Below are positions 349 through 14,193 of a DNA stretch of 64,000 bases, in pieces. The position numbers were made by a program, and so were the translations under genes. The DNA comes from Treponema sp. (GTDB lineage: Bacteria; Spirochaetota; Spirochaetia; Treponematales; Breznakiellaceae). The stretch is from NCBI GenBank assembly GCA_009777735.1, contig WRLF01000001.1:1-64000 (forward strand), in the 5' to 3' direction. The notes beneath the pieces are model-generated. The model worked only from the letters and a program-made list of their open reading frames with translations, was not told where the DNA came from and made no database searches. Within the stretch, counting starts at the first letter, position 1. The number at the start of each line of letters is the position of its first letter.

Positions 349-1098
349 ATGACCGAAGTACTTTCACAGGATGAAATTGACCAACTGTTGACGGCAATAA
401 ATTCTGACAGTTCAAGTAATGCTTTTAATGGCATTGAAGCTTTTGAGCAGTATTTGACCAAACGAACATTCAAACCCGAAAAACCTTATGGCATATTTGA
501 CAAGGATATTTCAATATGCAGATATTTTGATTCAGGAAGCAATGAAAATATCCTTGCAGACATTAAAAGAAAGAATGAAGAACAGGGGTACGGCAATATT
601 AAAATACCCAATACCAATATTACGCTGATTAATTATTCGTTTTGTCATAAATGCAAAACAATATTCAGTTTAAAAGAAGTTACCGAATACTACATGAACC
701 CAAAACCTGATCCCAGGTTTTCTAACAGGGCACGGCAATACCGGGATGATACAAGGGTTTACTGTAAAAACTGCGATTCGTATTTTCTGCCATCACTGGT
801 CATATCAGACGGAACTCCAAAAAATGAAGTGCAATTTCTGTGCAGATCACAAACGATAGAAGCAATAGAAAAATATTTTAAGCAGATAAACATGTACGTA
901 TTAACAAGAAGAAAGAAAAATATTGTTCAAAGAGGCAATTTACGGGCAATAAAAAATGATGTTTATATTAAAGACATGGAAAAAAAACCAACACTAATTA
1001 CCAACATGATACAGTATACCCCGTATAAGTATATTTTAAATCTTATAGACGGGACAAATGTCGAAAAAGGAGATTTGCTATTTAATGAATGGAAATAA
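349..1098 (+). CDS. FliM N-terminal peptide joined to a double-CxxC protein
   Basis: 249 aa of mostly unknown function. Residues 1-17 (MTEVLSQDEIDQLLTAI) look like the conserved start of the flagellar switch protein FliM, the segment that binds phosphorylated CheY; the EIDQLL core is intact. Nothing after about residue 20 resembles FliM: there is no CheC-like middle domain and no SpoA C-terminal domain, and the protein is far shorter than FliM (about 330-350 aa). Instead it has CxxC pairs at C99/C102 and C139/C142, consistent with one zinc-binding fold split by a 36-residue insert, and a Lys/Arg-rich C-terminal third. The start has a GGAG about 10 nt upstream. The stop overlaps the WYL gene start by 10 nt, so the two are probably co-transcribed. 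AT-rich relative to the window. CheY-P binding is an inference. Confidence 0.6.
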   Translation: MTEVLSQDEIDQLLTAINSDSSSNAFNGIEAFEQYLTKRTFKPEKPYGIFDKDISICRYFDSGSNENILADIKRKNEEQGYGNIKIPNTNITLINYSFCHKCKTIFSLKEVTEYYMNPKPDPRFSNRARQYRDDTRVYCKNCDSYFLPSLVISDGTPKNEVQFLCRSQTIEAIEKYFKQINMYVLTRRKKNIVQRGNLRAIKNDVYIKDMEKKPTLITNMIQYTPYKYILNLIDGTNVEKGDLLFNEWK

Positions 1099-2141
1099 AA
1101 ACCAGTATGATGTATAATTATTACATGAAACCCAGAAAAAGCCTCCCTAAAACCGCCTTGCCAAGGATTTACTTTATCGACGATGAAATTGCCTCGGGAA
1201 CATACCCTAATGCCTCCGATCTGGCAAAAAAATACGAAACAAGCTTATCCAGTATCAATCGTGATATTGCCTATATGCGGGATATGATGGGAGCGCCTAT
1301 TGTCTACGACTTTTTCAAAAAGGGCTTTTACTATTCGGAAAAAACTTTCCGGCTTCCTGCCGCATACGCCACTGCCGATGATCTGCTTGCCCTGGGCATG
1401 GCTAAAAACCTTATGGAATTATACCGTGATACCCCCATTCACGAATCCGCATTAAACCTCCTGGAAAATATTACCGCCCCCTTGCAGGGAGACCTCAATA
1501 ATGAATGGTTTATAAACCGCATTGTTATTCCCAAAACCGCATCCGCGCCGGTTAACACAGAAATATGGAATAGCATTATACACAGCCTGCGTGAAAACCG
1601 GACAATTACATTTCAATACCAGGGAGCCAAAGGAATAAATCTACATACCCAGGAAAAAATACGCAGGCCTAAGCTGGAAATGCGCCGCGCACGTCCCTAC
1701 CAACTGCTCTTTGACAGCAGCGCCTGGTATCTTTTTGCCTATGACGAAGACAGGGAAAAAATGAGGATGTTCGCTTTATCCAGAATAACCGATGTATCCC
1801 TCAAAACCGACACTTTCACCATCGAAGAAGGTTTTGACTACCGCAGCCTGGAAGGGGCCAGTTATTTTGGCGTGTACCAAGGCAGAAAAGTATTCAGGTT
1901 TACTATTACAATAAGCGGCGATACCCGATGGATTTCAGAGCGCCAATGGGCTGCAGACCAGCACATACAGGAGACTAAAACCGGTATAAAACTATCCTTT
2001 ACCAGCAATCAATTTGAAAAAGTTCTTGATTGGGTTCTTTCGCAAGGGCCTTTTGCCCGCCCTCTTGCCCCCAAAGCGCTTGTCGAACGCTGGACGGCAT
2101 CCATAAAAGAAATGGCAAAAATGCTTAATGCGAAGGGTTGA
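1089..2141 (+). CDS. WYL-domain transcriptional regulator
   Basis: 350 aa. Residues about 22-80 form a DeoR/HTH_11-like winged helix (ASDLAKKYETSLSSINRDI is the recognition-helix region), followed by a WYL domain (about 165-245) with W213-Y214-L215 inside SSAWYLFAYDEDREKMRMF, and a C-terminal WCX-like extension ending near residue 345. WYL proteins are cytosolic DNA-binding regulators thought to sense nucleic acid or nucleotide ligands, and many control defence or DNA-damage genes. The start overlaps the upstream gene; AGGAG at 1068-1072 is 16 nt away, so an inner Met (residue 7 or 13) is possible. Local regulation of the three operator-like repeats is a reasonable but unproven guess. Confidence 0.85.
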   Translation: MEIKTSMMYNYYMKPRKSLPKTALPRIYFIDDEIASGTYPNASDLAKKYETSLSSINRDIAYMRDMMGAPIVYDFFKKGFYYSEKTFRLPAAYATADDLLALGMAKNLMELYRDTPIHESALNLLENITAPLQGDLNNEWFINRIVIPKTASAPVNTEIWNSIIHSLRENRTITFQYQGAKGINLHTQEKIRRPKLEMRRARPYQLLFDSSAWYLFAYDEDREKMRMFALSRITDVSLKTDTFTIEEGFDYRSLEGASYFGVYQGRKVFRFTITISGDTRWISERQWAADQHIQETKTGIKLSFTSNQFEKVLDWVLSQGPFARPLAPKALVERWTASIKEMAKMLNAKG

Positions 2142-2206
2142 GCAAAAATATGGGAACCAATATAATTATAACAGTGTTCTGCTCGAAACTGATTCCGATA
2201 TTTTTC

Positions 2207-2236
2207 ACACGGAGGCACAGAGGACACGGAGGCACA
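2207..2236 (+). repeat. Direct repeat ACACGGAGGCACA x2
   Basis: The 13-mer ACACGGAGGCACA occurs at 2207-2219 and again at 2224-2236 (17-bp period), just before the nuclease-like gene. Read through in the upstream-extended frame it encodes the phrase HTEAQRTRRHKG. From memory, similar sequence recurs in many unrelated bacterial genomes, often near GxxExxY-type genes, so it is more likely a mobile or repeat sequence than coding. Confidence 0.6.
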
Positions 2237-2268
2237 AAGGTGATAAATTGGAAGAAAAGGAGATATTT

Positions 2269-2940
2269 ATGAAAGAATCTATCATTGAGAGTTTTATTAA
2301 AGAATTTTTTATTAATAAAGAGAATTTTTTTGAATGCAAAAACAATATCGATAGATATACCTATTGGAGTCTTATGCATAAAATCGAAAGACCTATTCAA
2401 GACGATTTCGCATATTTTTTACATAAAAAAATGTCAGAAACTAATATTGTCTCTATTGAATACAGTTTAGGTAATAGAGAAAGTGCTGATATAATGATAC
2501 TTTCAAAAAAAGGTGAAAGGAAAATACTGATTGAATTAAAAGCATGTTTTGCAGAAGACTTAGAAGAAAAAAAAATAAAAACAAAAAGGGGGTACGGGAC
2601 TAAAATTATAAATGATTACAAAAAAAGAAAAAAAATAATTACTGATGAAAAATATTTTATTCTTATAGCATCCTATCATTATGATATGCCAGAAAAAAAT
2701 GATATTGATGATTCATATATCGTTAACTATTCAGATAATATGAAACATTCAACAAAATTAGCAGACGAGAAAAAAAATTATGATGATTTTTTTTATACAG
2801 CTAAAAATAATATTAAAAATTATAAAAAATATAGCAAACAACTTGAATTAAGAGATTCTTGTTCGAACAACATTAAACTGGGAGAAGCATTTGGAATAAA
2901 ATGCGGCCTATACTGCTTTGTATTTAAGGCAAAAAAATAA
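2269..2940 (+). CDS. PD-(D/E)XK nuclease-like protein
   Basis: 223 aa. I chose the ATG at 2269 because AAGGAG lies 7 nt before it; the frame is open back to 2128 but that extension is encoded by a repeat (2207-2236). Around residue 70 the pattern S-A-D-I-M-I-L ... I-L-I-E-L-K-A fits the D-x(n)-ExK core of PD-(D/E)XK nucleases, with the acidic and ELK strands separated by a short KKGERK turn. The rest is Lys- and Asn-rich without other recognised domains. No methyltransferase or helicase partner is adjacent, so this is not a standard restriction system. The gene is strongly AT-rich with runs of A, unlike most neighbours, which suggests horizontal acquisition. Catalytic activity is inferred from the motif alone. 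Confidence 0.55.
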   Translation: MKESIIESFIKEFFINKENFFECKNNIDRYTYWSLMHKIERPIQDDFAYFLHKKMSETNIVSIEYSLGNRESADIMILSKKGERKILIELKACFAEDLEEKKIKTKRGYGTKIINDYKKRKKIITDEKYFILIASYHYDMPEKNDIDDSYIVNYSDNMKHSTKLADEKKNYDDFFYTAKNNIKNYKKYSKQLELRDSCSNNIKLGEAFGIKCGLYCFVFKAKK

Positions 2941-3022
2941 AAACAAACCAACTACCGCCGTATGTTAAATAAAACTAAAACAATAAGAGATAAAAAAAAA
3001 CCCTTTCCGGCTTTCCGATTTT

Positions 3023-4000
3023 ATGGTTATAAATGGAAATAAACTGTCAAATGAAAAAAAACCCAACCATACCATTGCCGCATATAGCTGGGCAATTGCA
3101 TTTAATCCAGCTTTCATATTTTCAAAGTCGGAATATCTGTTTTTCCGTGGAGCATATTATCACAAAATTAATGAATATGATTTGGCATTAAACGATTTCA
3201 TCCGGACTATTCAATTAGATCCTGATTATAGATTTGCTTATTTTGGGTGGGAAGCGGCGTATTTCAGAAAAAACACCATTGGATATGGGCCGTATAGTGT
3301 AGGCCCAGCGCCCGTTAACAACCTGCGTGAATTATACGCTAAGACATACAACCTGCCGGATAATTGGGCATATGATTTTTATTATGATGATGACGGTGAC
3401 ATTAAGCGTAAACCTTATTCTGATTTTATTTATAACGATTTATTTCTGGCCATAGTCTCGGGAGGCTGTCAAAAAGCAATTGATTTTGCAAATACCGCCA
3501 TGGAAAACATAACAAACAGCGATTGGGATAATGCCTATACCAACTTTTGCAATGCCATCAGTGCCGATTCCTTTTTCAAGGAGATTTACACAAAAGAAAG
3601 CAATGAGGTATATATCGAAGCAATCGATAAAATACAACAATCTATAAAAAGAGACCTTGATTACTACAGTAAAACAATAAAACCGGGGTGGCGTGAAATA
3701 ATTCAAAAAGATGATTTTTATCAGGTTTTACAGGAATTTTTGACTAAAAACGGAGAAGATATATTTGACCGGCATAATTTTAACGCTCTATTTGATGATC
3801 ATCTGGGCGGAGAATATAAAAAAGAGGCCGTTATTCTAAAAAATCTACTGGAAAAACAGGTTCACCAGGAAATCCGGGAATCTGAAAATATCGATGAAAC
3901 CAAAGAACAGTTAATCCAAAAACACTCCGGCTCACTGCCTCAAAACAGCGACATTATAACCCGTATAATTCTGATCTTATGCGATTTGCTGAAGAAATAG
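3023..4000 (+). CDS. TPR-like protein of unknown function
   Basis: 325 aa, no signal peptide. Residues about 15-75 look like one or two tetratricopeptide repeats (AYSWAIAFNPAF; YDLALNDFIRTIQLDPDY). The middle is rich in Asp/Tyr and Asn, and the C-terminal 60 residues form a charged helix ending in a hydrophobic IITRIILILCDLLKK. There is no clear Shine-Dalgarno before 3023, and the protein begins abruptly just ahead of a repeat, so the true start could differ or the gene could be 5'-truncated. It sits between the nuclease-like gene and the operator pair of the kinase/VWA operon. TPRs bind peptides or proteins; no partner can be named. Confidence 0.6.
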   Translation: MVINGNKLSNEKKPNHTIAAYSWAIAFNPAFIFSKSEYLFFRGAYYHKINEYDLALNDFIRTIQLDPDYRFAYFGWEAAYFRKNTIGYGPYSVGPAPVNNLRELYAKTYNLPDNWAYDFYYDDDGDIKRKPYSDFIYNDLFLAIVSGGCQKAIDFANTAMENITNSDWDNAYTNFCNAISADSFFKEIYTKESNEVYIEAIDKIQQSIKRDLDYYSKTIKPGWREIIQKDDFYQVLQEFLTKNGEDIFDRHNFNALFDDHLGGEYKKEAVILKNLLEKQVHQEIRESENIDETKEQLIQKHSGSLPQNSDIITRIILILCDLLKK

Positions 4001-4030
4001 CCTAAAAAACAATACTATTTAAGTTTTACT

Positions 4031-4059
4031 TTCACTATATCACTGTATGACACAGTGAA
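4031..4059. promoter_or_regulatory. Operator-like inverted repeat, copy B
   Basis: 29 bp bounded by TTCACT (4031-4036) and AGTGAA (4054-4059), which are perfect inverted arms, with a nested second palindrome CACTGT (4041-4046) / ACAGTG (4052-4057). It is 26/29 identical to copy C, whose start lies 85 bp downstream, about eight helical turns. The dyad symmetry and helical phasing suggest binding of a dimeric regulator on one DNA face, upstream of the kinase/VWA/ligase operon. Confidence 0.6.
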
Positions 4060-4115
4060 TGCTGTATGATGCATAGTATATAAGGCATGTTGAAAACAAT
4101 AATTTTAAAATATTT

Positions 4116-4144
4116 TTCACTATGTCGCCGTATGACACAGTGAA
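4116..4144. promoter_or_regulatory. Operator-like inverted repeat, copy C
   Basis: Same 29-bp element as copy B, with arms TTCACT (4116-4121) and AGTGAA (4139-4144) and the shared core TATGACACAGTGAA. It ends about 30 bp before the start codon of the first operon gene (4176), so binding here could cover the transcription start or 5' UTR. It differs from copy B at three positions, all in the left half. Confidence 0.6.
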
Positions 4145-4175
4145 AATAGTAGAATTGAAGTACAAGGAGAAAGCA

Positions 4176-4769
4176 ATGGGTAAAAACCTGGTTTTTAATC
4201 TGCATGGCCGCCTTTTTACAACAGAGTCGGTAAAGATTGAACGGAAAAAACTGTATGGTTTTAGTAAAACGCTTGTGTACGATGAAAACGGTCATGAATG
4301 TGAAACGGTAAGTCTTGATGAAGGAGCTTGCGGCATCATCCCCAGGGGAGGTCTGGGGCTGGGTATACTGTCACCCGAAGGTATATGGGTGGAACGGAGC
4401 GCGTTAAAAGCCGTTGATATGCATGGCCGGGATGCGCCGCTGTTTGAATCAAGCTACGACTGCACAACAACGCTTGATACCAGAATAGCAACAGAAGATT
4501 TTCTGGACTATTGTATTACCGGGTTTTACGAACTGCCGGGTAAAGATTTTGCCCAGGCCATTGGCGATGCTATCTATGCGTTTGATTATTGTTACCGCGC
4601 AAGTTATGAACCTTCAGCTGCTTTTATTTTAGCCGCCGGGGAAAGCGCTTTTTTACTGACAGGGCATAAAGCCAAGTTTGAAATGCTCAGTCTGCCCGAG
4701 GAAGTTACTCTTGACGATGATGCAGAAGAAATCGATGAGAGTGACGAAATTGATTTTTCAATGATATAA
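4176..4769 (+). CDS. Unknown protein, first gene of kinase/VWA/ligase operon
   Basis: 197 aa from the ATG at 4176, which has AAGGAG 6-7 nt upstream; the frame is open further back only through the operator element. I do not recognise the family. It is probably cytosolic (no signal peptide or membrane segment). The N-terminal half is rich in beta-type residues (LVFNLHGRLFTTESVKIERK), a Gly-rich turn (PRGGLGLGIL) follows, and the last 25 residues are an acidic tail (DDDAEEIDESDEIDF). A 12-nt gap separates it from the next gene, so it belongs to the operon. The acidic tail could be a protein-interaction or regulatory segment, but no function can be assigned. Confidence 0.65.
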   Translation: MGKNLVFNLHGRLFTTESVKIERKKLYGFSKTLVYDENGHECETVSLDEGACGIIPRGGLGLGILSPEGIWVERSALKAVDMHGRDAPLFESSYDCTTTLDTRIATEDFLDYCITGFYELPGKDFAQAIGDAIYAFDYCYRASYEPSAAFILAAGESAFLLTGHKAKFEMLSLPEEVTLDDDAEEIDESDEIDFSMI

Positions 4770-4781
4770 GCGGAGAAATTT

Positions 4782-5474
4782 ATGAGAGCGATTAATCTGG
4801 CGAACAGCCAAAAACGGGACGCTAAAATTGGCTTTGAACCTAAAGCAAAGAAAAGTTTTATTAAAATGATCCTTGCCGACGGCAGGGAAAAGAACAATGT
4901 CCAGTTTCTTAAAACAAAGCACAGTATGCGGTCGCTTTTACGGCAATACAATACACCGGATGAAATTAAAAACGCCATAATCCAGGGGGATCCGGAAATT
5001 GATATTGAAAACGGTGGTCGTCTTATCGAAAAAACACGCCGGATGTATGTAACAGGCGCAAACGAAACGGCCTACTCTGTTTCGCTGGTACAGGCAGTGT
5101 ATGACGCAAGCGGCAATGAAATCGAAAAGCGCGAGCTTGCTAAAGTACCGTCAAATATTGGCACAGATATTCCGGTAAAGTGGTCGGGAAAAGAATTTCC
5201 CAAAGAAGAATCGGTCAGAAAATTTGTATTCAGCAAAAAATATCAACTAAGGCATACATCGGGAATCACATTTGATTTTCTGTATGACATGGCAAAATAC
5301 CTTCACGAAAGAAATACCATGATGTTTGTCGGAGGCGGCAAAAAAGGAAACGAACCGCTGGTATTATGCGCAGGAGGAGAACCCTACCGGGGCTTCCTCG
5401 AAGGCAGGGTCAGTGAAAATGCTTACTGCCTCATCCTGCATCTCAGTTCAATGGAAATTAAACAGGGAGCATAA
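4782..5474 (+). CDS. Unknown protein, second gene of kinase/VWA/ligase operon
   Basis: 230 aa, unrecognised. No signal peptide. The N-terminus is basic (KRDAKIGFEPKAKKSF). The second half carries a hydrophobic stretch (GITFDFLYDMAKYLHE), a Gly-rich turn (MFVGGGKKGNEPL) and GGEPYRGFLEGRVSENAY. Preceded by a GGAG 6 nt before its ATG and followed one nucleotide later by the VWA-ligase start, so it is translationally coupled to it. The VWA-ligase frame extends upstream into this gene, but no ribosome site supports such a start. Its placement directly before the ligase fusion suggests it may be a partner of that protein; this rests on gene order only. Confidence 0.65.
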   Translation: MRAINLANSQKRDAKIGFEPKAKKSFIKMILADGREKNNVQFLKTKHSMRSLLRQYNTPDEIKNAIIQGDPEIDIENGGRLIEKTRRMYVTGANETAYSVSLVQAVYDASGNEIEKRELAKVPSNIGTDIPVKWSGKEFPKEESVRKFVFSKKYQLRHTSGITFDFLYDMAKYLHERNTMMFVGGGKKGNEPLVLCAGGEPYRGFLEGRVSENAYCLILHLSSMEIKQGA

Positions 5475-5475
5475 T

Positions 5476-7557
5476 ATGACCTTACTTACTAATCCAGAAA
5501 AAATTCCAGGAAAAACAATCACCTTCTTTTTTGTCGTGGAAAATTCCGCCGCCATGAAGGGGCTAAAGCTGCAAACAGTTAATACCGCATTAGAGCATTA
5601 TACCGCTGTTTTACAATACTATGCTGCGGTAAAAGCGCAGACGGAAATCAGAATTGCCCTGCTGACATTTGCCGAAGATGTCCAGTGGCTGACTGAAAAA
5701 CCCCTTGCCGCAGAAAGTTATGTATGGTCACCCATATCCGAAGCCGAAAACGATACAGAGACGGCTGTTTCTTTGGGCCCTGTGTTTTCAGAGCTTAATC
5801 AAAAGCTTTCAAAAAATGTTTTTATGGATTCGCTCTCAGGAGCGCTGCCTCCGGTCATTGTTATGTTTTCTGCAAGCCCCTGCCCGGATAACGATGCAAC
5901 AATGCAAGAATCATTGCGCCTGCTTGAAAAAAACAACTGGGATAAAAACGCGCTCAAACTTGCTTTTGCCATTGGAAAAACAGCAAACTGCGAAGTGTTG
6001 GAAAAATGGACCGGCTGCGCAGGGCTGACTCTGCCGGTAAAAAACCCCCAGATGCTCCTTGAATACGCCGGGGCAACCGGACGCCTCTGTACGGACATTG
6101 CCATCAATCATGATTTTGATCGGCAACTTACACTGAAAAATGCCATTGCCGGTATTGTATTGCCTGCAAAGACAGTCGGTGTAACACTTGCTACAGCGCC
6201 GGATATTACGGACAGTCCCGAAGCAAAAGGCTTATCAGCAATTGCTGTTGAGTATAAAAATGCAATAACAAAAAACTATGTGTCCCTTAATCCTTCTCAC
6301 ATTGATGAGAGAATAGGCGGCAGTAAATATTACATTACCCGCAAATATGACGGCATACTTGCGATTGTCTCATGGAACGGAAATTCGCTTGTCGCCGTCA
6401 ATTCCAGCGGAAATCCCATTAAAAACTGCAACTGCTTTGACCAAACCGCATCTGTGTTAAAAAATGCAGGAATTACAAACCTTATTTTCGCGGCTGAACT
6501 GTATGCTGACGAAAGTAACGGCAGGAGCCGGGTAAGCGACGGTCTTTCCGCGCTGGCTGCAGACGGATCAGCATTACGATTGGCGCCATTTGATATTATT
6601 TATCAGGGAGAAAAACCGCTGCCGTATAATGAAACATACCGTAAGCTGCAGGACATTTTTAGCGATAATGTCCATTGCAAGCCCGTACGGTACATAGAAG
6701 CAAACTCCAAAGCAGAAATAAAACAAATTTTTTCCAAGTGGGTAGAATCAGAAGGAAGCGAAGGGCTAATTATAAGGAGCGAATTTCCTATCATCTATAA
6801 ACTCAAGCCAAAAATTTCTGTAGATGCCGCCGTTGTGGGCTTTTCCGAATGCAGCGATGTTAAAGGGCAAATTCGCACCCTGCTCTATGCTTTGCGAACC
6901 GAGAGCGGCGAATATCAAATTATCGGCAGAACGGGCAACGGTCTATCGGCAGAACAAAGATCGCAACTTTTTACACAGCTTATGCCGATGAAAATACCAT
7001 CACATTATCTGGAAATTGATTCCAACCGCCTTGCGTTCCACATGATACGCCCCGAACTGGTTATCGAACTTTCAGTTAATGATGTTATTACCGAAAATAC
7101 ATCCGGTAGTATCAAAAATCCGCTGTTAAATTATACCAGCAATGAAATGAAACAGATCGGGAGCTACCCTGGTTATAGTTTTATTTCAGCAGTCATTGAA
7201 AGGATACGGGAAGATAAAACAAACAGTATTAGAGATGTATCTATTGCACAGATTAGCGGACGTGGTACTCCATTAAGCAGCGAATCGAGCGTAAAACAGG
7301 ATAGGTCTTCATCAAAACTTTTAAGGCGGGAAGTATGGACAAAAGGATCTGCCGTACAAAAGCTGCTTGTATGGAAAACCAATAAAGAACCGTTCAGTTA
7401 TCCCGGTTATGCCGCTTCATGGACTATTTTTAATCCGAACATAGCAGAACCGTTCAAAGTGGAAATGCGTATAACAAATTGCGAAAAACAAATACACCAG
7501 CTTGCCGGGCAATTTGTGGTAAAAAATATCAAAGCGGGCTGGATAAGGAGTGACTAA
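5476..7557 (+). CDS. Degenerate VWA domain fused to ATP-dependent DNA-ligase-type core
   Basis: 693 aa from the ATG at 5476 (GGGAG 7 nt upstream). Residues 1-200 form a VWA domain clearly paralogous to the protein at 8842, but the metal site is broken: DTSGS is replaced by ENSAA (22-26) and the third-loop LSDGEP by FSASPC (131-136). Residues about 265-545 carry the nucleotidyltransferase ligase motifs: motif I K290-Y-D-G, motif III around AAELYAD (339-345), motif IV EGLIIR (429-434), motif V KLKP (442-445), then an OB-fold region with IIGRTGNGLS and MIRPELVIEL as in DNA-ligase C-termini. Lys290 would be the adenylated residue. A C-terminal extension (about 620-693) is unassigned. It probably seals nicks in DNA or RNA, or transfers nucleotides, in a complex organised by the VWA module. 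The substrate is unknown. Confidence 0.8.
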   Translation: MTLLTNPEKIPGKTITFFFVVENSAAMKGLKLQTVNTALEHYTAVLQYYAAVKAQTEIRIALLTFAEDVQWLTEKPLAAESYVWSPISEAENDTETAVSLGPVFSELNQKLSKNVFMDSLSGALPPVIVMFSASPCPDNDATMQESLRLLEKNNWDKNALKLAFAIGKTANCEVLEKWTGCAGLTLPVKNPQMLLEYAGATGRLCTDIAINHDFDRQLTLKNAIAGIVLPAKTVGVTLATAPDITDSPEAKGLSAIAVEYKNAITKNYVSLNPSHIDERIGGSKYYITRKYDGILAIVSWNGNSLVAVNSSGNPIKNCNCFDQTASVLKNAGITNLIFAAELYADESNGRSRVSDGLSALAADGSALRLAPFDIIYQGEKPLPYNETYRKLQDIFSDNVHCKPVRYIEANSKAEIKQIFSKWVESEGSEGLIIRSEFPIIYKLKPKISVDAAVVGFSECSDVKGQIRTLLYALRTESGEYQIIGRTGNGLSAEQRSQLFTQLMPMKIPSHYLEIDSNRLAFHMIRPELVIELSVNDVITENTSGSIKNPLLNYTSNEMKQIGSYPGYSFISAVIERIREDKTNSIRDVSIAQISGRGTPLSSESSVKQDRSSSKLLRREVWTKGSAVQKLLVWKTNKEPFSYPGYAASWTIFNPNIAEPFKVEMRITNCEKQIHQLAGQFVVKNIKAGWIRSD

Positions 7558-7558
7558 T

Positions 7559-8845
7559 ATGGAAGATTTGAAAAAAGGATTGGTGTTGCAGACCTGCTCC
7601 GGTAAAACCGTAAAGGTACAGGAAAAACTGGGAGAAGGCGGACAGGGAGCCGTTTACCGGGTAGCAAACAACAGTAAGCAAAAAGCCCTCAAGTGGTATC
7701 ATAAAAACGCCCTGAAGAATCCGGTGAAATTTTATGAAAACCTGGAATCCAATATCGCCAAAGGGGCTCCGACAAAATCTTTTTTGTGGCCGCTCGATCT
7801 TACCCAAAAAACCGATGATGGCTTTGGCTATATTATGGATCTGCGCCCCGGGGAGTATAAGGATTTTTCCCTTTTCCTTTTGGCAAAAGAAAAATTTGCC
7901 AGCGTAACGGCAATTACCAATGCCGGCCTGCAGATCATCGAGTCGTTCCGGGAATTGCATAATTCCGGCTACAGCTATCAGGATTTGAACGACAGCAATT
8001 TTTTTGTTAATCCCAAAAACGGCGATGTGCTCATTTGTGATAATGACAATGTGGCGGAATACGGAAAAAATCTGGGGATTGCCGGCAAATGCCGCTACAT
8101 GGCGCCGGAAGTAGTGTTGGGCAAAGAATTACCCAGCATACACACCGATAAGTTTTCTCTGGCTGTGGTGCTTTTTCTCCTGCTTATGAATAACCATCCG
8201 CTGGAAGGAAAACGTTCCTATCCGCCCTGCATGACCGAAGCCCTTGAACGGAAAATATACGGCGAAGAGCCGCTGTTCATTTTCGATGAAGCCGATGATT
8301 CAAACAGCCCGGTGCCTGGGATCAACAATAATGCGATTAAACGCTGGCCTGTTTACCCTGACTATGTCCGCAGGAAATTTACCGAAGCATTCAGCCAGAG
8401 CGCCATGAAAGATCCTGCAAAACGGGTTATCGAAAAAGACTGGCTGAAAACCTTTATACGTCTTCGCAGTGAAATATATAAATGCCAATCCTGCGGTGAA
8501 ATCTTTTTTGCAGATCCTGTCCATGAAACTCCGTGTCCGTTCTGTCAGAATATTCAGCGTTTTAACCAGCATATTGTATTGCCAAAGATGCCTATTGCCA
8601 TACATGACAGGACAAAACTTTTTGAATGTCATATTGATGCAGACAGCGACGATTTTAAAACCATTGCCGCAGAATCGGTACGGAACGAATCTACGGGATT
8701 AACGGAATTGAAAAACCGTTCAAAGAAGGCATGGCTTATAATCGACAGCAATGGAAAGCAAACATCAAAAGCGCCGGGAAAAACAGTGCCTGTTGAAAAA
8801 GGTACTCAAATAATATTTGGTAATACCAAAGGAGAGATCACATGA
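7559..8845 (+). CDS. Ser/Thr protein kinase with C-terminal zinc ribbon (TerY-P-type)
   Basis: 428 aa from the ATG at 7559 (AAGGAG 8 nt upstream; a GTG three codons earlier overlaps that site). Kinase features: glycine loop GEGGQGAV (25-32), VAIK-type lysine K45 (ALKWY), catalytic loop YQDLNDSN with D142, DND at 161-163 in place of DFG, and APE (182-184). HRD is changed to YQD, as in other bacterial kinases of this class. C309/C312/C326/C329 (CQSC...CPFC) form a zinc ribbon. The last 80 residues form a beta-rich domain ending in GTQIIFGNTKGEI. The kinase plus zinc ribbon next to TerY-like VWA and PP2C genes is the described TerY-P triad. It should phosphorylate operon partners, reversed by the PP2C at 9615. 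Cytosolic. Confidence 0.88.
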   Translation: MEDLKKGLVLQTCSGKTVKVQEKLGEGGQGAVYRVANNSKQKALKWYHKNALKNPVKFYENLESNIAKGAPTKSFLWPLDLTQKTDDGFGYIMDLRPGEYKDFSLFLLAKEKFASVTAITNAGLQIIESFRELHNSGYSYQDLNDSNFFVNPKNGDVLICDNDNVAEYGKNLGIAGKCRYMAPEVVLGKELPSIHTDKFSLAVVLFLLLMNNHPLEGKRSYPPCMTEALERKIYGEEPLFIFDEADDSNSPVPGINNNAIKRWPVYPDYVRRKFTEAFSQSAMKDPAKRVIEKDWLKTFIRLRSEIYKCQSCGEIFFADPVHETPCPFCQNIQRFNQHIVLPKMPIAIHDRTKLFECHIDADSDDFKTIAAESVRNESTGLTELKNRSKKAWLIIDSNGKQTSKAPGKTVPVEKGTQIIFGNTKGEIT

Positions 8846-9621
8846 GTCTAAACGAAGCAGTAGAAGCAATCCCCAGAAAGTCAATGGTTCTGTTCTTTTT
8901 GATTGACACATCGGGAAGCATGTCGGGTTCCAAAATCGGCGCGGTAAACGCCGCCATTGAGGAAGTCATTCCGGAATTGAAGGATATTTCTGCAAACAAT
9001 GCAGATGCCGAGGTGAAAATTGCCGCTTTGGAATTTTCTCATAGCGCAAGCTGGATTACCAGTGCAGGCCCCGTTCCCGTTGATGATTTTAGTTGGCGTT
9101 ATGTTGACGCAGGCGGCAATACTGCCATGGGAGAAGCCTTTCATAAATTGAACGAAGCCCTGTCAACAAAAACATTTATGCAGGATGCCGTTGGATCTTT
9201 TGCACCGGCAATTTTTATGCTTTCTGACGGTGAACCCACCGATGACTTTGCCGGAGGACTTGCTGAATTAAAAACAAACAACTGGTTTAAAGCGGCAATC
9301 AAAGTTGCTGTTGCCATTGGCGATGATGCCAATAAAAACCGCCTGGCCGAATTTACCGGCTCCATGGAATCTGTTTTGGAAGTGCATAATGCCGCAATGC
9401 TGCGCAAGATGATTAAATTTGTATCTGTCAGGGCTTCCCAGGTGGCAAGTAAAAGCGTTCAGGTTAATAGCATAAAACCTGCGGCTATTGCGGTTAATGG
9501 CCAGGACAATGAAAATCAGGCTGTAGATGCAACAGCGGCCCCGGTAAAACAAGCGGCGCTCAATGAGCAGCTTGCGCAAATAAAAGCAGAAGCTGCAGCC
9601 GGCGGAGATGATGAATGGTAA
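8842..9621 (+). CDS. TerY-like VWA-domain protein with intact metal site
   Basis: 259 aa; its start overlaps the kinase stop by ATGA (8842-8845). The VWA domain spans about residues 13-205. The metal-ion-dependent adhesion site is complete: DTSGS (22-26), the loop threonine T94 in GGNTAMG and D129 in LSDGEP. After residue 205 there is an Ala/Gln-rich linker ending in GGDDEW. TerY-like proteins are cytosolic adaptors thought to assemble complexes through metal-dependent ligand binding, and they occur as a triad with the kinase and phosphatase seen here. Its sequence parallels the degenerate VWA of the ligase fusion (for example KNNW/TNNW and AFAIG/AVAIG), indicating duplication within this system. 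Confidence 0.87.
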   Translation: MSLNEAVEAIPRKSMVLFFLIDTSGSMSGSKIGAVNAAIEEVIPELKDISANNADAEVKIAALEFSHSASWITSAGPVPVDDFSWRYVDAGGNTAMGEAFHKLNEALSTKTFMQDAVGSFAPAIFMLSDGEPTDDFAGGLAELKTNNWFKAAIKVAVAIGDDANKNRLAEFTGSMESVLEVHNAAMLRKMIKFVSVRASQVASKSVQVNSIKPAAIAVNGQDNENQAVDATAAPVKQAALNEQLAQIKAEAAAGGDDEW

Positions 9622-10400
9622 AAGATATGACTTTTTCAGCATTCAATGTAAGCTGTATCGGCGCATCCCACCTTAAGACGAACAAACCCTGCCAGGATTA
9701 TTCTGCCTGCTGGAATTCAGGCGCCATGGCGATAATAGCCGTCGCTGACGGTCACGGCGCCGAAATCCATTCCCGCAGCGAACGCGGGGCGCGTTTTGCG
9801 GTTGAAACAGCGATTGAATGCATCAGGGAATTACTCATGTTAAAAGATTCATTGTTGCCCAATCCCTCTGAAGCATTATGCACTCTTGAAAAAAGCATCA
9901 TCGCATCCTGGCAGGAAAAAGTTGCCGATGACATACGAGGCGATCCCATAGCAGGCGATGCGGTTAATCATTATGGGACTACCCTGCTTGCAGCGGCAGT
10001 TACCCAGAGTTATTGGTTTGCTATCCAGATTGGTGATGGAAAATGCGTGGTTATTAATAAAAACAACCGTTTTAGCCAGCCTGTTCCCTGGGATGAACGC
10101 TGTTTTTTGAACAGAACAACTTCCATCTGCGATGAAAATGCATGCGATCTGTTCCGTCATTTTTACAGCGAGCATATACCTGCTGCCATATTCATTGGGA
10201 GCGATGGCATTGATGATTCGTTTCCCATAAATGAAAATGAAAAACACCTTTCGCGATTTTACTGGAAGGTTTTTCGCAACTTCATTGTGGAAGGAAATGA
10301 TAAAGGCAGAGAACAATTGCAGGAGATCCTGCCTTTATTCACCCAAAAAGGCTCAGGAGACGATGTTTCCATAGCCGGTATTATCAGGAGATTTTTATGA
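9615..10400 (+). CDS. PP2C-family Ser/Thr phosphatase
   Basis: 261 aa, overlapping the VWA gene by 7 nt; a second Met at residue 5 is an alternative start. PP2C metal-binding motifs are present in order: CQDYS (26-30), VADGHG (43-48, Asp45 and Gly46), GTTL, IQIGDG, GSDGIDD and GDDVS near the C-terminus. It should be a soluble Mn/Mg-dependent phosphatase that removes phosphate added by the kinase at 7559. The order kinase, VWA, PP2C with overlapping stop and start codons indicates stoichiometric co-production. No extra domains are seen. Confidence 0.9.
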   Translation: MVKDMTFSAFNVSCIGASHLKTNKPCQDYSACWNSGAMAIIAVADGHGAEIHSRSERGARFAVETAIECIRELLMLKDSLLPNPSEALCTLEKSIIASWQEKVADDIRGDPIAGDAVNHYGTTLLAAAVTQSYWFAIQIGDGKCVVINKNNRFSQPVPWDERCFLNRTTSICDENACDLFRHFYSEHIPAAIFIGSDGIDDSFPINENEKHLSRFYWKVFRNFIVEGNDKGREQLQEILPLFTQKGSGDDVSIAGIIRRFL

Positions 10401-12037
10401 ACATGCTTGATCATTTTGAAAAAATCATCAGTCTTGTGAAAAAAAACGGCCTTAATGATGGATTTTTTGAATCTGCACAAGAACATCTTGATGCGGCTGC
10501 ATCTCTTTTTCATACCAATCCTGTCCAGACTGTACTTTTTGCCATTCTCCTTGATAATTACAACAAAAGAGATTACTATTCTGCCGAAGATATTTCCAAA
10601 ATAATCAAATGCGGGAGGTTGCAATTTCTAAAATTTCTGGATGATTTTGACGATTTAAGGCGAAAAAGATTGATCAGGAAAAAAGGCAGCTGTGAGAATT
10701 TTCCCAGATATCATATCCCAATGGATGTCATCAATGCTGTCCGGAAGGGCATTGAATATCAGGATACAACCTATGAAAACTTAAGCCCGGAAGAATTTTT
10801 TGACCTCGCCCAAAAATTGATTGATGATGCAGATGATTATGAACCAGACACATTGGAAGATGAAGTAAATTACTTGCTTGATTGTAATAAAAATATCTGT
10901 TTTGTCCAAAAATCAAAAGAATATGATTTGGGCGAAGGATCGGTGTTGATATTACTTGCTTTCTGCTGTGCTTTGCTGCATGAAAATAAGGAAATTCTTG
11001 AAATTGACGAATTAAGATTTAAATTACGTGAAATTTTTGGACATCATCATGTGCGGCAAATTCTTGGCCGTTTTAAATCAGGCAAACATAAATTATTCGA
11101 AAAAGAGCTTATTGAATACGACTGTTTGGACGGACTGGCTGACACAGAACACGTGCGCCTTTCTCAAAAAGCAATAGACGAATTCCTTGATGATGTTGAT
11201 ATAAAAGAAAACGCAAAACGCAAAGGCAAAGATTATATTCATGTGAATAAAATCCCTGAGAAAAAGCTTTTTTACAGCAATAAAATAAATGAGCGTATCG
11301 TTGAATTAACTGCTTTGCTAAAGGAGGAAAATATAACCATAATCCAAAAACGCCTGTCTGAAAACGGCATGCGTACCGGCTTTGCCTGCCTGTTTTCCGG
11401 CCCGCCGGGAACCGGTAAGACCGAGACTGTCTACCAGATAGCACGCGAAACAGGACGCGATATATTGTTGGTTAATATTGCTGAAACTAAAAGTATGTGG
11501 TTTGGTGAAAGTGAAAAGCGCATTAAAGCTGTTTTTGACCGTTATCGGGGAATAGTAAAAAGCGGAGGTCTTGCACCAATACTCTTATTCAACGAGGCTG
11601 ATGCGATTCTGGGGAAACGGCGGGAATTGGCAGCGTCACGCAGCGGTCCAGGTCAAACCGAAAATGCCATACAGAATATCATCCTGCAGGAAATGGAAAA
11701 CCTCAACGGCATCCTCATTGCTACCACCAACATGACCGTCAACCTTGACAAAGCTTTCGAGCGCCGCTTCCTGTACAAAATCGAATTTGATAAACCGGAT
11801 GCCGAATCAAAAAAAATGATCTGGCAAAGCCTTCTCCCCGACCTCTCCACTGAGGATGCTTCCCGGTTCTCGGTGCAATATGATTTTTCCGGCGGTCAGA
11901 TAGAAAACATCGCCCGTAAAAGTACCGTTTCCAGCATACTCAAAGGTTCGATTCCGGATTCTTCGGTTTTGGAAACTTTTTGCAAGGAAGAATCGCTGGA
12001 AAAAACCGCCGTTAAAATTGGTTTTTCTGCTGATTAG
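10397..12037 (+). CDS. AAA+ ATPase, last gene of kinase/VWA/ligase operon
   Basis: 546 aa, ATGA overlap with the PP2C gene. Residues 1-290 form a mostly helical region with two stretches resembling winged-helix or TPR-like folds (YYSAEDISKIIKCGRLQFLK). The AAA+ module follows: Walker A GPPGTGKT (335-342), Walker B LLFNEAD (396-402) with Asn399 where Asp is usual but Glu400 kept, sensor-1 IATTN, and the ERRF arginine-finger region. The overall class is Cdc48/FtsH-like (ATPase central domain). It may remodel or load partners such as the ligase fusion on nucleic acid. The D-to-N change in Walker B could slow Mg/ATP turnover. An AGGAGG at 12036-12041 overlaps its stop codon. Confidence 0.85.
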   Translation: MNMLDHFEKIISLVKKNGLNDGFFESAQEHLDAAASLFHTNPVQTVLFAILLDNYNKRDYYSAEDISKIIKCGRLQFLKFLDDFDDLRRKRLIRKKGSCENFPRYHIPMDVINAVRKGIEYQDTTYENLSPEEFFDLAQKLIDDADDYEPDTLEDEVNYLLDCNKNICFVQKSKEYDLGEGSVLILLAFCCALLHENKEILEIDELRFKLREIFGHHHVRQILGRFKSGKHKLFEKELIEYDCLDGLADTEHVRLSQKAIDEFLDDVDIKENAKRKGKDYIHVNKIPEKKLFYSNKINERIVELTALLKEENITIIQKRLSENGMRTGFACLFSGPPGTGKTETVYQIARETGRDILLVNIAETKSMWFGESEKRIKAVFDRYRGIVKSGGLAPILLFNEADAILGKRRELAASRSGPGQTENAIQNIILQEMENLNGILIATTNMTVNLDKAFERRFLYKIEFDKPDAESKKMIWQSLLPDLSTEDASRFSVQYDFSGGQIENIARKSTVSSILKGSIPDSSVLETFCKEESLEKTAVKIGFSAD

Positions 12038-12064
12038 GAGGTATATCTTGCATGATGTTGTTAA

Positions 12065-12625
12065 ATGTGTAAAATAAAACTTGACACATTGAATGCGGAG
12101 AAAGACATGAAAGAAGTGTTTGAACAGGCAATAAGGGGGCTGGCGTTTGAATACGCAGTAGTACCGACTTCGGCTATCGCATTTTCACGTGAATTACAAA
12201 AATCTTGTGAAACTAATATTTGCGGAAAGTACAATAAATGCTGGACTTGTCCGCCGGCAATTGATTCCATTGACATTCAAATAAAAAAAATTATCGCATT
12301 TTCATCTGCATTTGTCTTTACCACAAAATCCACGCTGGAGGATTCTTACGATTATGAAGGGATGGTAAAGGCAAAAGAATACCATGACCGGCTTACCGCC
12401 GATATGCATGAGCGGTTTGGAAAAACCAACCCTGTTTTCGGAGCCGGCGGTTGCACCATTTGCAAGGAATGCGCATATCCCGAACCATGCAGGTTTCCGG
12501 AAAAAACTTTCACCTCTATAGAAGCAGCGGGAATCAATGTAACGGAACTTAGTCATGCCGGAAAGCTGCGATATAACAATGGTGCCAATACAGTCACCTA
12601 TTTTTCAATGATTCTGTTCAATTAG
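12065..12625 (+). CDS. DUF2284 metal-binding protein
   Basis: 186 aa from 12065; an inner ATG at 12107 has a better GGAG spacing and would give 172 aa. The family signature is a set of conserved cysteines in two groups: CGKYNKCWTCPPA (about 58-70) and GCTICKECAYPEPCRFPEK near the C-terminus, suited to an iron-sulfur cluster or corrinoid-related metal. DUF2284 proteins are common in anaerobes, often near methyltransferase or corrinoid genes, but the biochemical role is not established. Placement 11 nt before a RACo-like gene supports a corrinoid/methyl-transfer context. Cytosolic. Confidence 0.82.
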   Translation: MCKIKLDTLNAEKDMKEVFEQAIRGLAFEYAVVPTSAIAFSRELQKSCETNICGKYNKCWTCPPAIDSIDIQIKKIIAFSSAFVFTTKSTLEDSYDYEGMVKAKEYHDRLTADMHERFGKTNPVFGAGGCTICKECAYPEPCRFPEKTFTSIEAAGINVTELSHAGKLRYNNGANTVTYFSMILFN

Positions 12626-12636
12626 AGATTTTCGGT

Positions 12637-14193
12637 ATGTCTGAGAAAAAGCTTACTTTTTTAATAACTATACACCAACGCAGTATCTCCGGAAAAGATG
12701 AAAGATCGTTTACCTGTGAGGCGGAGAGCGGAGAAACCATTGCCCTTGCCTGCGCCCGTGCGGGATTTTTTTTACCCACTCCATGCGGCGGGCAAGGACG
12801 ATGCAAAAAATGTAAAGTACAGCTTCTTGAAGGACATGTTTCCGGCGGAACATTGTTAGGTGATATGCCGGATAACGAAGGCTGGATATGCGCCTGCCGT
12901 GCAAGGCCGGCTTCCGATATTACCATTTCCTGTCTTTCATGCGGAGAATTGGGAATTAACGAAGTTCTTGCAGAAAAAACCGAAAACCGGTTTCTCCCTT
13001 CCGGCGCCGGTATCAAACGCGCTGGGGTTGCGGTTGACATTGGTACCACCACAGTTTCAGCAAAGCTTATCGACCTGGAAACATTATTGACCCTGGAAAC
13101 AATTTCGGAATTAAACGATCAATGGGTCTATGGCGCCGATATTATGAGCCGTATCAGTGCAGCAAAAAAAGGCGAAACAGAGAAGCTTTTTATGCTGATA
13201 AACCGCCAAATAGAAAAAATCCTTACAGCGTTCAGAGAACTGAGGGACATACATACAGTAGAAAGACTCTCGGTGAGCGGTAATACGGTAATGCTGCACC
13301 TTTTCCTCAATGTTGATCCTTCAGGAATGGGAGCCAAGCCTTTTACACCGGCTTTCCTTGAAGAAAAAGTGCTACAAGGAAAAACTATTTCGCTTTCAGT
13401 TGAGCAGGTATTGGTTCTGCCTTCAATTGCAGCATTCATCGGAGGGGACATTACCGCAGGGCTTGCAGCTCTTGACATCACTAACATACCCGGACCATCT
13501 CTGCTTGTTGATATAGGCACAAACGGAGAAATGGCATTGGTAAAAGACGGAAATATTTATTGTTGCTCAACAGCAGCAGGCCCGGCTTTTGAAGGCGCCG
13601 AAATTTCCTGCGGCGCAGGCGGAATCAAGGGGGCTATCAGCGGGGTGCGGTTCGCGGAAAATGATGAGACAACAGCATTTTCAATTACCACCATCGGGAA
13701 TGTTCCGCCTGTGGGCATCTGCGGTTCCGGCCTCATTGACGCCGTTGCGATGATGCTCAGAAAAGGAGTGATTGATGAGGCCGGCTATATGGCTGCCCCG
13801 GAAAAAAAATTCATTTTGGCTCCCGGTATTTCTATATCACAAAGGGACATACGTCAGTTCCAGTTGGCAAAGAGCGCGATCTTTTCCGGCATTAGGATAC
13901 TATGCAAAACATGCGGACTTCATACGAAAGATATTCACAATGTGTTTATCGCCGGAGGCTTAGGTTTTTTTATCAACAAACATAATGCGGTAACTGCAGG
14001 GATTTTTCCGAAAGAATTCCTTGAAACGATCTCCGTAAGCGGAAATCTGAGCCTCCGAGGCGCCGAAGAATGCCTGACCGACAGCGGGTTTTTGGAGAAG
14101 TGCAAACACATAATCAGCCGGTGTTCGGTAATCGATCTTGCAACAGACTCGTCATTTACCGATGAATTTTCCGAGAATATGTTTTTTCATTGA
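12637..14193 (+). CDS. RACo-like corrinoid-activating ferredoxin/ASKHA protein
   Basis: 518 aa. The N-terminal 100 residues form a 2Fe-2S plant-type ferredoxin domain (C50, C56, C59 and a Cys in WICAC, 85 or 87). After a linker comes an actin-like ATPase fold (DUF4445) with VAVDIGTTT as phosphate-1 loop, LLVDIGTNGEMAL and GLGFFINKHN. This architecture is that of reductive activators of corrinoid proteins (RACo, RamA-like), which use ATP to reduce Co(II) to Co(I) in methyltransferase systems. No corrinoid protein or methyltransferase is in the window, so its client is elsewhere. In a homoacetogenic or O-demethylating anaerobe it would act in the Wood-Ljungdahl or methoxyl-demethylation pathway. 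Its stop overlaps that of the convergent uridine phosphorylase gene by 7 nt. Confidence 0.87.
   Translation: MSEKKLTFLITIHQRSISGKDERSFTCEAESGETIALACARAGFFLPTPCGGQGRCKKCKVQLLEGHVSGGTLLGDMPDNEGWICACRARPASDITISCLSCGELGINEVLAEKTENRFLPSGAGIKRAGVAVDIGTTTVSAKLIDLETLLTLETISELNDQWVYGADIMSRISAAKKGETEKLFMLINRQIEKILTAFRELRDIHTVERLSVSGNTVMLHLFLNVDPSGMGAKPFTPAFLEEKVLQGKTISLSVEQVLVLPSIAAFIGGDITAGLAALDITNIPGPSLLVDIGTNGEMALVKDGNIYCCSTAAGPAFEGAEISCGAGGIKGAISGVRFAENDETTAFSITTIGNVPPVGICGSGLIDAVAMMLRKGVIDEAGYMAAPEKKFILAPGISISQRDIRQFQLAKSAIFSGIRILCKTCGLHTKDIHNVFIAGGLGFFINKHNAVTAGIFPKEFLETISVSGNLSLRGAEECLTDSGFLEKCKHIISRCSVIDLATDSSFTDEFSENMFFH

What the first reader, a model, noticed from the sequence alone, without database searches (positions are those of the whole stretch)
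4176..12037. Seven-gene TerY-P-type operon with a VWA-ligase fusion: candidate uncharacterised stress or defence system
Order: two unknown proteins, VWA-ligase, kinase with zinc ribbon, TerY-like VWA, PP2C, AAA+. Several junctions overlap by 4 nt or a few nt, so products are probably made together. The kinase/VWA/PP2C set matches the TerY-P triad proposed from comparative genomics of ter and phage-defence loci. Here no terB/terC/terD/telA is in the window; instead a ligase and an AAA+ ATPase accompany the triad. Hypothesis: a phospho-switch controls an ATP-dependent complex that repairs or seals nucleic acid under stress or phage attack.
Basis: partly seen in the sequence, partly recalled or inferred. 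Interest (0 to 1): 0.9.

Follow-up and report, generated by a model that had tools for sequence, protein, structure and literature searches.

The report
Hidden two-part Ku end-joining module
Two unknown proteins beside an unusual DNA ligase are predicted to fold like Ku, the ring that grips broken DNA ends, so this bacterial operon probably encodes an unrecognised break-joining machine wired to a protein-kinase switch.

Summary
The operon is real: U1, U2, VWA-ligase, kinase with zinc ribbon, TerY-type VWA, PP2C, AAA+ at 4176-12037. It is two cassettes joined. Kinase/VWA/PP2C is an ordinary TerY-P triad that also occurs without the ligase genes. U1-U2-ligase is a conserved three-gene module, in that order in 17 of 21 ligase loci and in 5 of 5 new genomes found with U2 alone. 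U1 and U2 have no Pfam family. In structure searches all 50 rows shown for each model are Ku or Ku-bearing NHEJ/DNA-PK entries, and U2's top two viral hits are phage Ku. The ligase resembles the end-joining ligase domain, below its cut-off. Some relatives add a primase-HAD protein or SbcC/RecB-like genes. Best reading: a divergent, probably heterodimeric Ku end-joining system, here under a phospho-switch. Weak points: no sequence similarity to Ku, moderate models, overall TM-scores near 0.4, no experiment.

The parts
4031..4059 (.). 29-bp operator-like element, copy 1 (imperfect palindrome, 20 of 29 positions self-complementary)
   Evidence: Both copies and no third in the window (the pattern was built from them); direct repeat, which listed no inverted repeat at its settings; self-match
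4116..4144 (.). 29-bp operator-like element, copy 2, 85 bp after copy 1 and 31 bp before U1
   Evidence: one search lists this copy as a terminator-like hairpin on the - strand, an alternative reading
4176..4769 (+). U1, 197 aa: predicted Ku-core-like fold, acidic C-terminal tail with an invariant DF
4782..5474 (+). U2, 230 aa: predicted Ku-core-like fold
5476..7557 (+). VWA-ligase, 693 aa: degenerate VWA (about 1-200), ATP-dependent DNA ligase catalytic and C-terminal domains (about 278-581), family-specific C-terminal region (about 600-693)
7559..8845 (+). Protein kinase with C-terminal zinc ribbon (TerY-P kinase)
8842..9621 (+). TerY-type VWA with intact metal site
9615..10400 (+). PP2C phosphatase (alternative start 9627)
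10397..12037 (+). AAA+ ATPase; its AAA domain resembles IetA, CdvC and CDC48 models
   Evidence: unlinked full-length relatives
3023..4000 (+). TPR protein with a C-terminal domain of about 62 aa shared with proteins near triads in relatives; probably associated

Best explanation
U1-U2-ligase is a divergent bacterial non-homologous end-joining module. U1 and U2 are Ku-fold proteins that probably pair (a heterodimer, as in Ku70/80, rather than the usual bacterial homodimer), grip double-strand DNA ends and recruit the ligase, which seals them. In some relatives a separate protein with a primase-polymerase domain and a HAD-like phosphatase domain would fill gaps and clean 3' ends, doing the jobs of LigD's other two domains. 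In this lineage the module has been joined to a TerY-P triad: the ligase carries a TerY-like VWA with a broken metal site that would dock it to the TerY/kinase/PP2C complex, so that phosphorylation and dephosphorylation switch end joining on or off; the AAA+ ATPase probably remodels or releases the complex. Shown: gene order, conservation, domain content, invariant ligase motifs, predicted folds. Inferred: pairing, DNA-end binding, joining, control by the triad, role of AAA+.
For: Order U1-U2-ligase in 17 of 21 ligase loci; of the other four, L025 and L038 are cut by the contig end inside U2, L043 is broken and shows only part of U2, L041 has neither. A search with U2 alone in 246 genomes found 6 (one being the centre), and 5 of 5 new ones have U1 before and ligase after, the ligase only in part in L151 and U2 split in L149. 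Pairwise distances of the three proteins correlate at r 0.96-0.97 over 17 loci (shared descent alone also gives this). Ku-bearing entries fill the 50 rows shown for U1 (of 597) and for U2 (of 752), and phage Ku leads the viral models for U2. KxDG and further ligase motif residues are invariant in 22 of 22 rows; TIGR02779, the end-joining ligase domain, is matched by 22 of 22. Primase-HAD partner adjacent in L038, L039, L040, L042 and L149 and enriched among U2 carriers in one phylum sample (p 0.001 without the centre at a cut of 100 bits, 0.0017 with every hit). SbcD/SbcC-like genes after the ligase in L028, SbcC-, RecC- and RecB-like genes after it in L036, a RecB-like gene before U1 in L028. 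No standard Ku in 23 of 23 ligase-bearing genomes. Triad and module in two different orders in the window and L019, both with a VWA-ligase fusion. Ligase-AAA+ fusion in L150.
Confidence: 0.62

Rival explanations
1. An RNA-repair system: the ligase seals cleaved RNA and U1/U2 are SPOC- or Ku-like barrels that bind RNA or protein; the HAD-like domain heals RNA ends.
For: One partner weakly matches HAD_SAK_2, a model named for RNA-repair proteins, below its cut-off; CoCoNuT systems with TerY-P are predicted to target RNA (title and passages of PMC11090510); SPOC domains are near matches.
Against: The ligase profile's solved matches are DNA ligases (36 of 36 rows named DNA ligase or DNA ligase-like) and its family matches DNA/NHEJ ligases; neighbours in L028 and L036 are SbcC/RecB-type DNA-end enzymes.
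Confidence: 0.15
2. An anti-phage system in which triad, AAA+ and ligase sense and act on invading DNA; end joining is part of the immune response.
For: TerY-P triads occur in CoCoNuT loci, and TerY-P-like modules are cited there as stand-alone defence (PMC11090510, passages); type I restriction genes follow L150; the AAA domain matches IetA models, the kinase PD-T4-6 and mad6 models, TerY the TerY model weakly.
Against: PADLOC has nothing for U1, U2 or the ligase of the window and only two single-member weak hits among 18 U2 proteins; no relative of the VWA-ligase in 50,697 phage records, none confirmed in viral contigs. Neighbours were scanned only selectively, so absence of defence genes elsewhere is not shown.
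Confidence: 0.14
3. Two unrelated neighbouring cassettes with no functional link; the VWA fusion and shared operon are accidents of one lineage.
For: Each cassette occurs alone; the AAA+ gene has unlinked relatives in many genomes of the genus.
Against: The same combination in a different order in L019, with the ligase fused to a VWA in both and kinases 71% identical; tight, overlapping junctions.
Confidence: 0.08

Closest known systems
Bacterial two-component NHEJ (Ku homodimer + LigD)
   Same: Predicted Ku-core-like fold; ATP-dependent ligase whose best NCBI model is the NHEJ ligase domain; polymerase- and phosphatase-like domains available in some relatives
   Different: Two different Ku-like genes instead of one; no detectable sequence similarity to Ku; ligase and polymerase on separate polypeptides; HAD-like domain instead of LigD's phosphoesterase; extra ligase C-terminal region
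Eukaryotic Ku70/80 (and INTS13/14, seen as structure hits)
   Same: Two distinct Ku-core-like chains; VWA domains in the same system (vWA of Ku70/80 seen in passages of PMC11936186)
   Different: The VWA sits on the ligase or on separate genes, not on the Ku-like chains
TerY-P triad (as described in passages of PMC11090510)
   Same: Kinase with C-terminal zinc ribbon, TerY VWA, PP2C; a second VWA with a damaged metal site and a p97-like ATPase are also reported there for Type III-A CoCoNuTs
   Different: Coupled here to a Ku-like/ligase module; no McrB-type GTPase or coiled-coil nuclease found in the operon
Primase-polymerases of the AEP superfamily (Pfam AEP-TOTE; CAPP-type chain 7nqf by PDB match, its name from recall)
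   Same: AEP domain of the partner protein
   Different: Joined to a HAD-like C-terminal domain and placed next to the U1-U2-ligase module

Membership tests
Ku (PF02735) | Sequence match to the Ku profile | tested here: not met
   0 of 18 U2 and 0 of 18 U1 members list it at E up to 10; hhalign and hmmsearch negative
Ku (PF02735) | Ku-core fold | tested here: met
   On predicted models of moderate confidence only; whole-length TMq 0.43 and 0.38
Ku (PF02735) | Dimeric ring that binds DNA ends | not testable with these tools
   Needs biochemistry or complex prediction
LigD | NHEJ ligase domain at the curated cut-off | tested here: not met
   TIGR02779 is the window protein's best model but at 51.8 bits against 227.75; matched by 22 of 22 members, their scores not shown
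LigD | Polymerase and phosphoesterase domains in the same protein | tested here: not met
   None in the window protein; separate AEP-HAD protein in some relatives
ATP-dependent DNA ligase superfamily | KxDG lysine and further motifs plus C-terminal OB domain | tested here: met
TerY-P triad | Adjacent kinase with zinc ribbon, TerY VWA with metal site, PP2C | tested here: met
Ter (tellurite) system | terB/terC/terD/telA nearby | not tested
   Window proteins beyond the neighbourhood were not scanned
IetAS defence | IetA ATPase with a protease partner (partner from recall) | tested here: not met
   The match covers the AAA part only; no protease among the ten proteins between 2128 and 12625 scanned
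CoCoNuT / McrBC | McrB-type GTPase and coiled-coil nuclease | tested here: not met
   None among the operon's proteins by Pfam

The most novel reading that the evidence does not exclude
Bacteria possess a second, ancient or independently derived end-joining lineage with a heterodimeric Ku (U1/U2) and its own ligase family, unrecognised because its sequences no longer resemble Ku; in spirochaetes it is run by a kinase/phosphatase/VWA switch, a bacterial counterpart of phosphorylation-controlled eukaryotic NHEJ with VWA-bearing Ku.
Probability: 0.43. Interest if true: 0.93.

Novelty: new variant of a known kind. Interest (0 to 1): 0.82.

Why it matters
If true, end joining in bacteria is broader than Ku+LigD, exists in genomes that score as Ku-negative, and already has a two-subunit Ku. 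It would supply an untapped ligase/Ku set for DNA-end chemistry, a concrete target for the long-hypothetical TerY-P phospho-switch, and a test case for how VWA domains and Ku cores came together.

Tried and rejected
Sequence proof that U1/U2 are Ku: three attempts used a Ku profile that I had built partly from wrong strands or frames, and a fourth had only 6 Ku sequences; the corrected one (28 of the 30 Ku loci, the two with a stop inside the match or broken left out) was also negative. In one search the 12 weak hits printed are all U2 members (best E 0.025 against 36 sequences), which is not significant. U1 against U2: z 3.5 against column shuffles (2.0), hhalign probability about 2% at non-collinear positions; I do not claim it.

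The ligase as a phage or plasmid gene: no match in phages, none confirmed in viral contigs; in plasmids only the VWA part, in 2 records.

The AAA+ gene as a conserved part: hits of 300 bits or more in 11 of 59 relatives, the window's own included (by the rows shown); the 9 loci checked have none of the other genes in flanks of up to 1.5 kb. Only the L150 fusion links AAA+ and ligase.

Promoters: 15 sigma-70-like sites in 2900-12700 against 20.6 in shuffles, so none is evidence. The 29-bp elements could also be hairpins: see parts. A genome-wide count of them could not be made; only the window was searched. Base composition does not mark the operon as foreign.

Papers: ten searches listed none that describes U1/U2/ligase as a system, going by titles and starts of abstracts; several lists were capped (for example 20 of 107, 25 of 154, 10 of 547) and one search found nothing. 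Passages were read of PMC11090510, PMC5862659, PMC11936186 and PMC7159879; no paper was read whole. Two likely sources are not held: Burroughs and Aravind 2016 on RNA repair and Anantharaman et al. 2012 on ter systems; from recall the latter named the TerY-P triad and may mention ligases, so prior mention cannot be excluded.

Full report
WHAT IS THERE. Pfam finds an ATP-dependent DNA ligase (catalytic domain E 4e-6, C-terminal domain E 9e-8), a protein kinase, a VWA, a PP2C and an AAA domain; nothing meets its cut-off for U1, U2 or the ligase's N-terminus. That N-terminus matches separate VWA genes at 25-37% identity. Its metal site is broken (ENSAA), while that of the separate TerY gene is intact (DTSGS). 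Two 29-bp elements 85 bp apart lie just before U1 and nowhere else in the window; each is self-complementary at 20 of 29 positions, but the repeat finder listed no inverted repeat at its settings and one copy reads as a terminator-like hairpin on the other strand. A WYL-type regulator is encoded at 1089-2141; that it controls the operon is a guess.

TWO CASSETTES. In 59 relatives the VWA-ligase finds matches in 8 genomes, the window's own included; outside the window's own gene they cover only the VWA part. In 392 genomes of the phylum the ligase part is found in 4: the window's own, G260 (one contig), G258, and fragments in G122. In G260 the order is kinase-TerY-PP2C-U1-U2-VWA-ligase, without the AAA+ gene. 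In G258 there is U1-U2-ligase alone, the ligase having no VWA. The kinase finds matches above 150 bits in 7 of 198 genomes of the class. Of 9 fetched kinase/TerY regions (5-20 kb), 7 show kinase, TerY and PP2C in a row by the ORF script (the kinase split in L092); an eighth (L095) has kinase and PP2C there and TerY; the ninth (L094) is a short contig with part of a kinase and nothing flagged by the script. No ORF of the 9 regions matches U1, U2 or the ligase part. So triad and module are separable, and the window and G260 hold two arrangements of their union, both with a VWA fused to the ligase.

THE MODULE IS WIDE BUT RARE. One scan of 84,980 species genomes with the ligase gave 21 loci, a lower bound since it relies on two short patterns. 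By record titles these are Spirochaetia, Zoogloeaceae, Actinomycetes, Bacteroidales and relatives (Rikenellaceae, Prevotella and others), Cyanobacteria, Planctomycetota, Verrucomicrobia, Acidobacteriota and Granulosicoccaceae, which I count as eight phyla. Most are metagenome bins whose labels can be wrong; Prevotella sp. ne3005 and Prevotellamassilia timonensis An873 are named strains. L024 is the same record as the G258 contig, which places the window's genome in the phylum of Spirochaetia. U1 and U2 precede the ligase in 17 of 21, which by title come from six of the phyla; L025 and L038 are cut by the contig end inside U2, L043 is broken and shows only part of U2, L041 has neither. In L029 and L032 leucine-rich-repeat genes lie between U2 and ligase. 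A U2 profile finds 1 of 296 genomes in the phylum of G435 (the centre itself) and 6 of 246 in the phylum of G445 (centre included); 5 of 5 new ones carry U1 before and ligase after, the ligase partial in L151 and U2 split in L149. The ligase profile in 249 genomes of the phylum of G448 finds the centre at 624 bits and 38 other genomes at no more than 60 bits; the long frames among these, about 850 aa, look like LigD by their length.

THE LIGASE. The KxDG motif and other motif residues are invariant in the 22 rows aligned (L043, the duplicate L020 and the G122 fragments were left out). All 22 match the end-joining ligase domain TIGR02779 and a second DNA-ligase model, 19 match LigD; for the window protein TIGR02779 is the best but at 51.8 bits against a cut-off of 227.75. 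The solved matches are DNA ligases. A conserved C-terminal region of about 90 residues has no Pfam name.

CONTEXT SAYS DNA ENDS. Neighbours were scanned selectively (30 proteins, L049 among them being non-coding as given). A protein with an AEP primase domain (PF22548, above its cut-off in 2 of 4, just below in the other 2) and a HAD-like C-terminus (below Pfam's cut-offs in L038 and L039, unlisted in L040 and L042; a solved chain matches this part at E 1e-7) lies beside the module in L038 (4-nt overlap), L039 (opposite strand), L040 and L042 and in L149 (split frames). Of 23 ligase-bearing genomes 5 have it in full, one of them with a stop inside. In the 246-genome sample it is enriched among U2 carriers: matches of 100 bits or more in 4 genomes, 3 of them U2-positive; without the centre p 0.001; with every hit (16 genomes) p 0.0017. 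L028 has a RecB-like gene before U1 and, after the ligase, a calcineurin-like phosphoesterase (4-nt overlap) and an AAA_23/SbcC-like gene; L036 has SbcC-, RecC- and RecB-like genes after it. L040 has an exo/endonuclease-phosphatase gene after the ligase and L038 a HerA-like gene. Standard Ku is absent from 23 of 23 ligase-bearing genomes, against 24 of 150 with it in one phylum, Fisher p 0.047; the comparison mixes phyla and incomplete bins and is weak.

LINKS TO SWITCH AND ATPASE. VWA genes recur near the module: fused to the ligase in the window and L019, downstream in L025, and a CoxE-type VWA with DUF5682 and a MoxR-like AAA gene upstream in L148. In L150 the ligase shares one 1043-aa frame with an AAA domain (PF00004, E 4e-40) that also matches the window's AAA+ (29% over 191 residues), followed by type I restriction genes. 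In CoCoNuTs a duplicated VWA with a damaged metal site and a p97-like ATPase accompany TerY-P (PMC11090510, passages). This supports, without proving, a VWA-mediated dock and AAA+ remodelling here.

VERDICT. Ku-like fold of both unknowns: about 0.85. DNA end joining as their job: about 0.7. Control by the triad: about 0.6. A defence purpose: about 0.3 as a partial role. No description of this module was found in the held papers by ten searches (listed under tried and rejected), but two relevant papers are not held.

Noticed in passing
window 3023-4000; L090 (1), L091 (4), L098 (4), L019 (1): A domain of about 62 aa (QGExIL...DYxxxEYKxE) recurs in proteins near TerY-P triads, also joined to TPR or FGE-sulfatase parts; no Pfam name found for it in the window protein.
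   Followed up: partly
window 1089-2141: WYL-type regulator; possible reader of the elements upstream of U1.
   Followed up: no
window 2128-2940: Low-GC (27%) gene with a very weak restriction-enzyme R N-terminus match (E 0.064, below cut-off); possibly a nuclease.
   Followed up: no
window 10397-12037: Walker B of the AAA+ protein reads LLFNEAD, with Asn where Asp is usual.
   Followed up: no
L036 8053-9240; L019 5168-6331: FGE-sulfatase domain in the frame that carries U1 in L036; FGE-like proteins upstream of the triad in L019, by clustering and sequence look only.
   Followed up: no
L029, L032: BspA-type leucine-rich-repeat genes between U2 and ligase in Prevotella-type genomes.
   Followed up: no
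L148, L149: Module beside MoxR-like AAA, DUF5682 and CoxE-VWA genes (L148) or SWIM and DUF5691 genes (L149).
   Followed up: partly
L040 9035-11293: Ligase frame with about 300 extra N-terminal residues of unknown kind.
   Followed up: no
L150 2404-5535: Ligase in one frame with an AAA domain, followed by type I restriction genes.
   Followed up: partly
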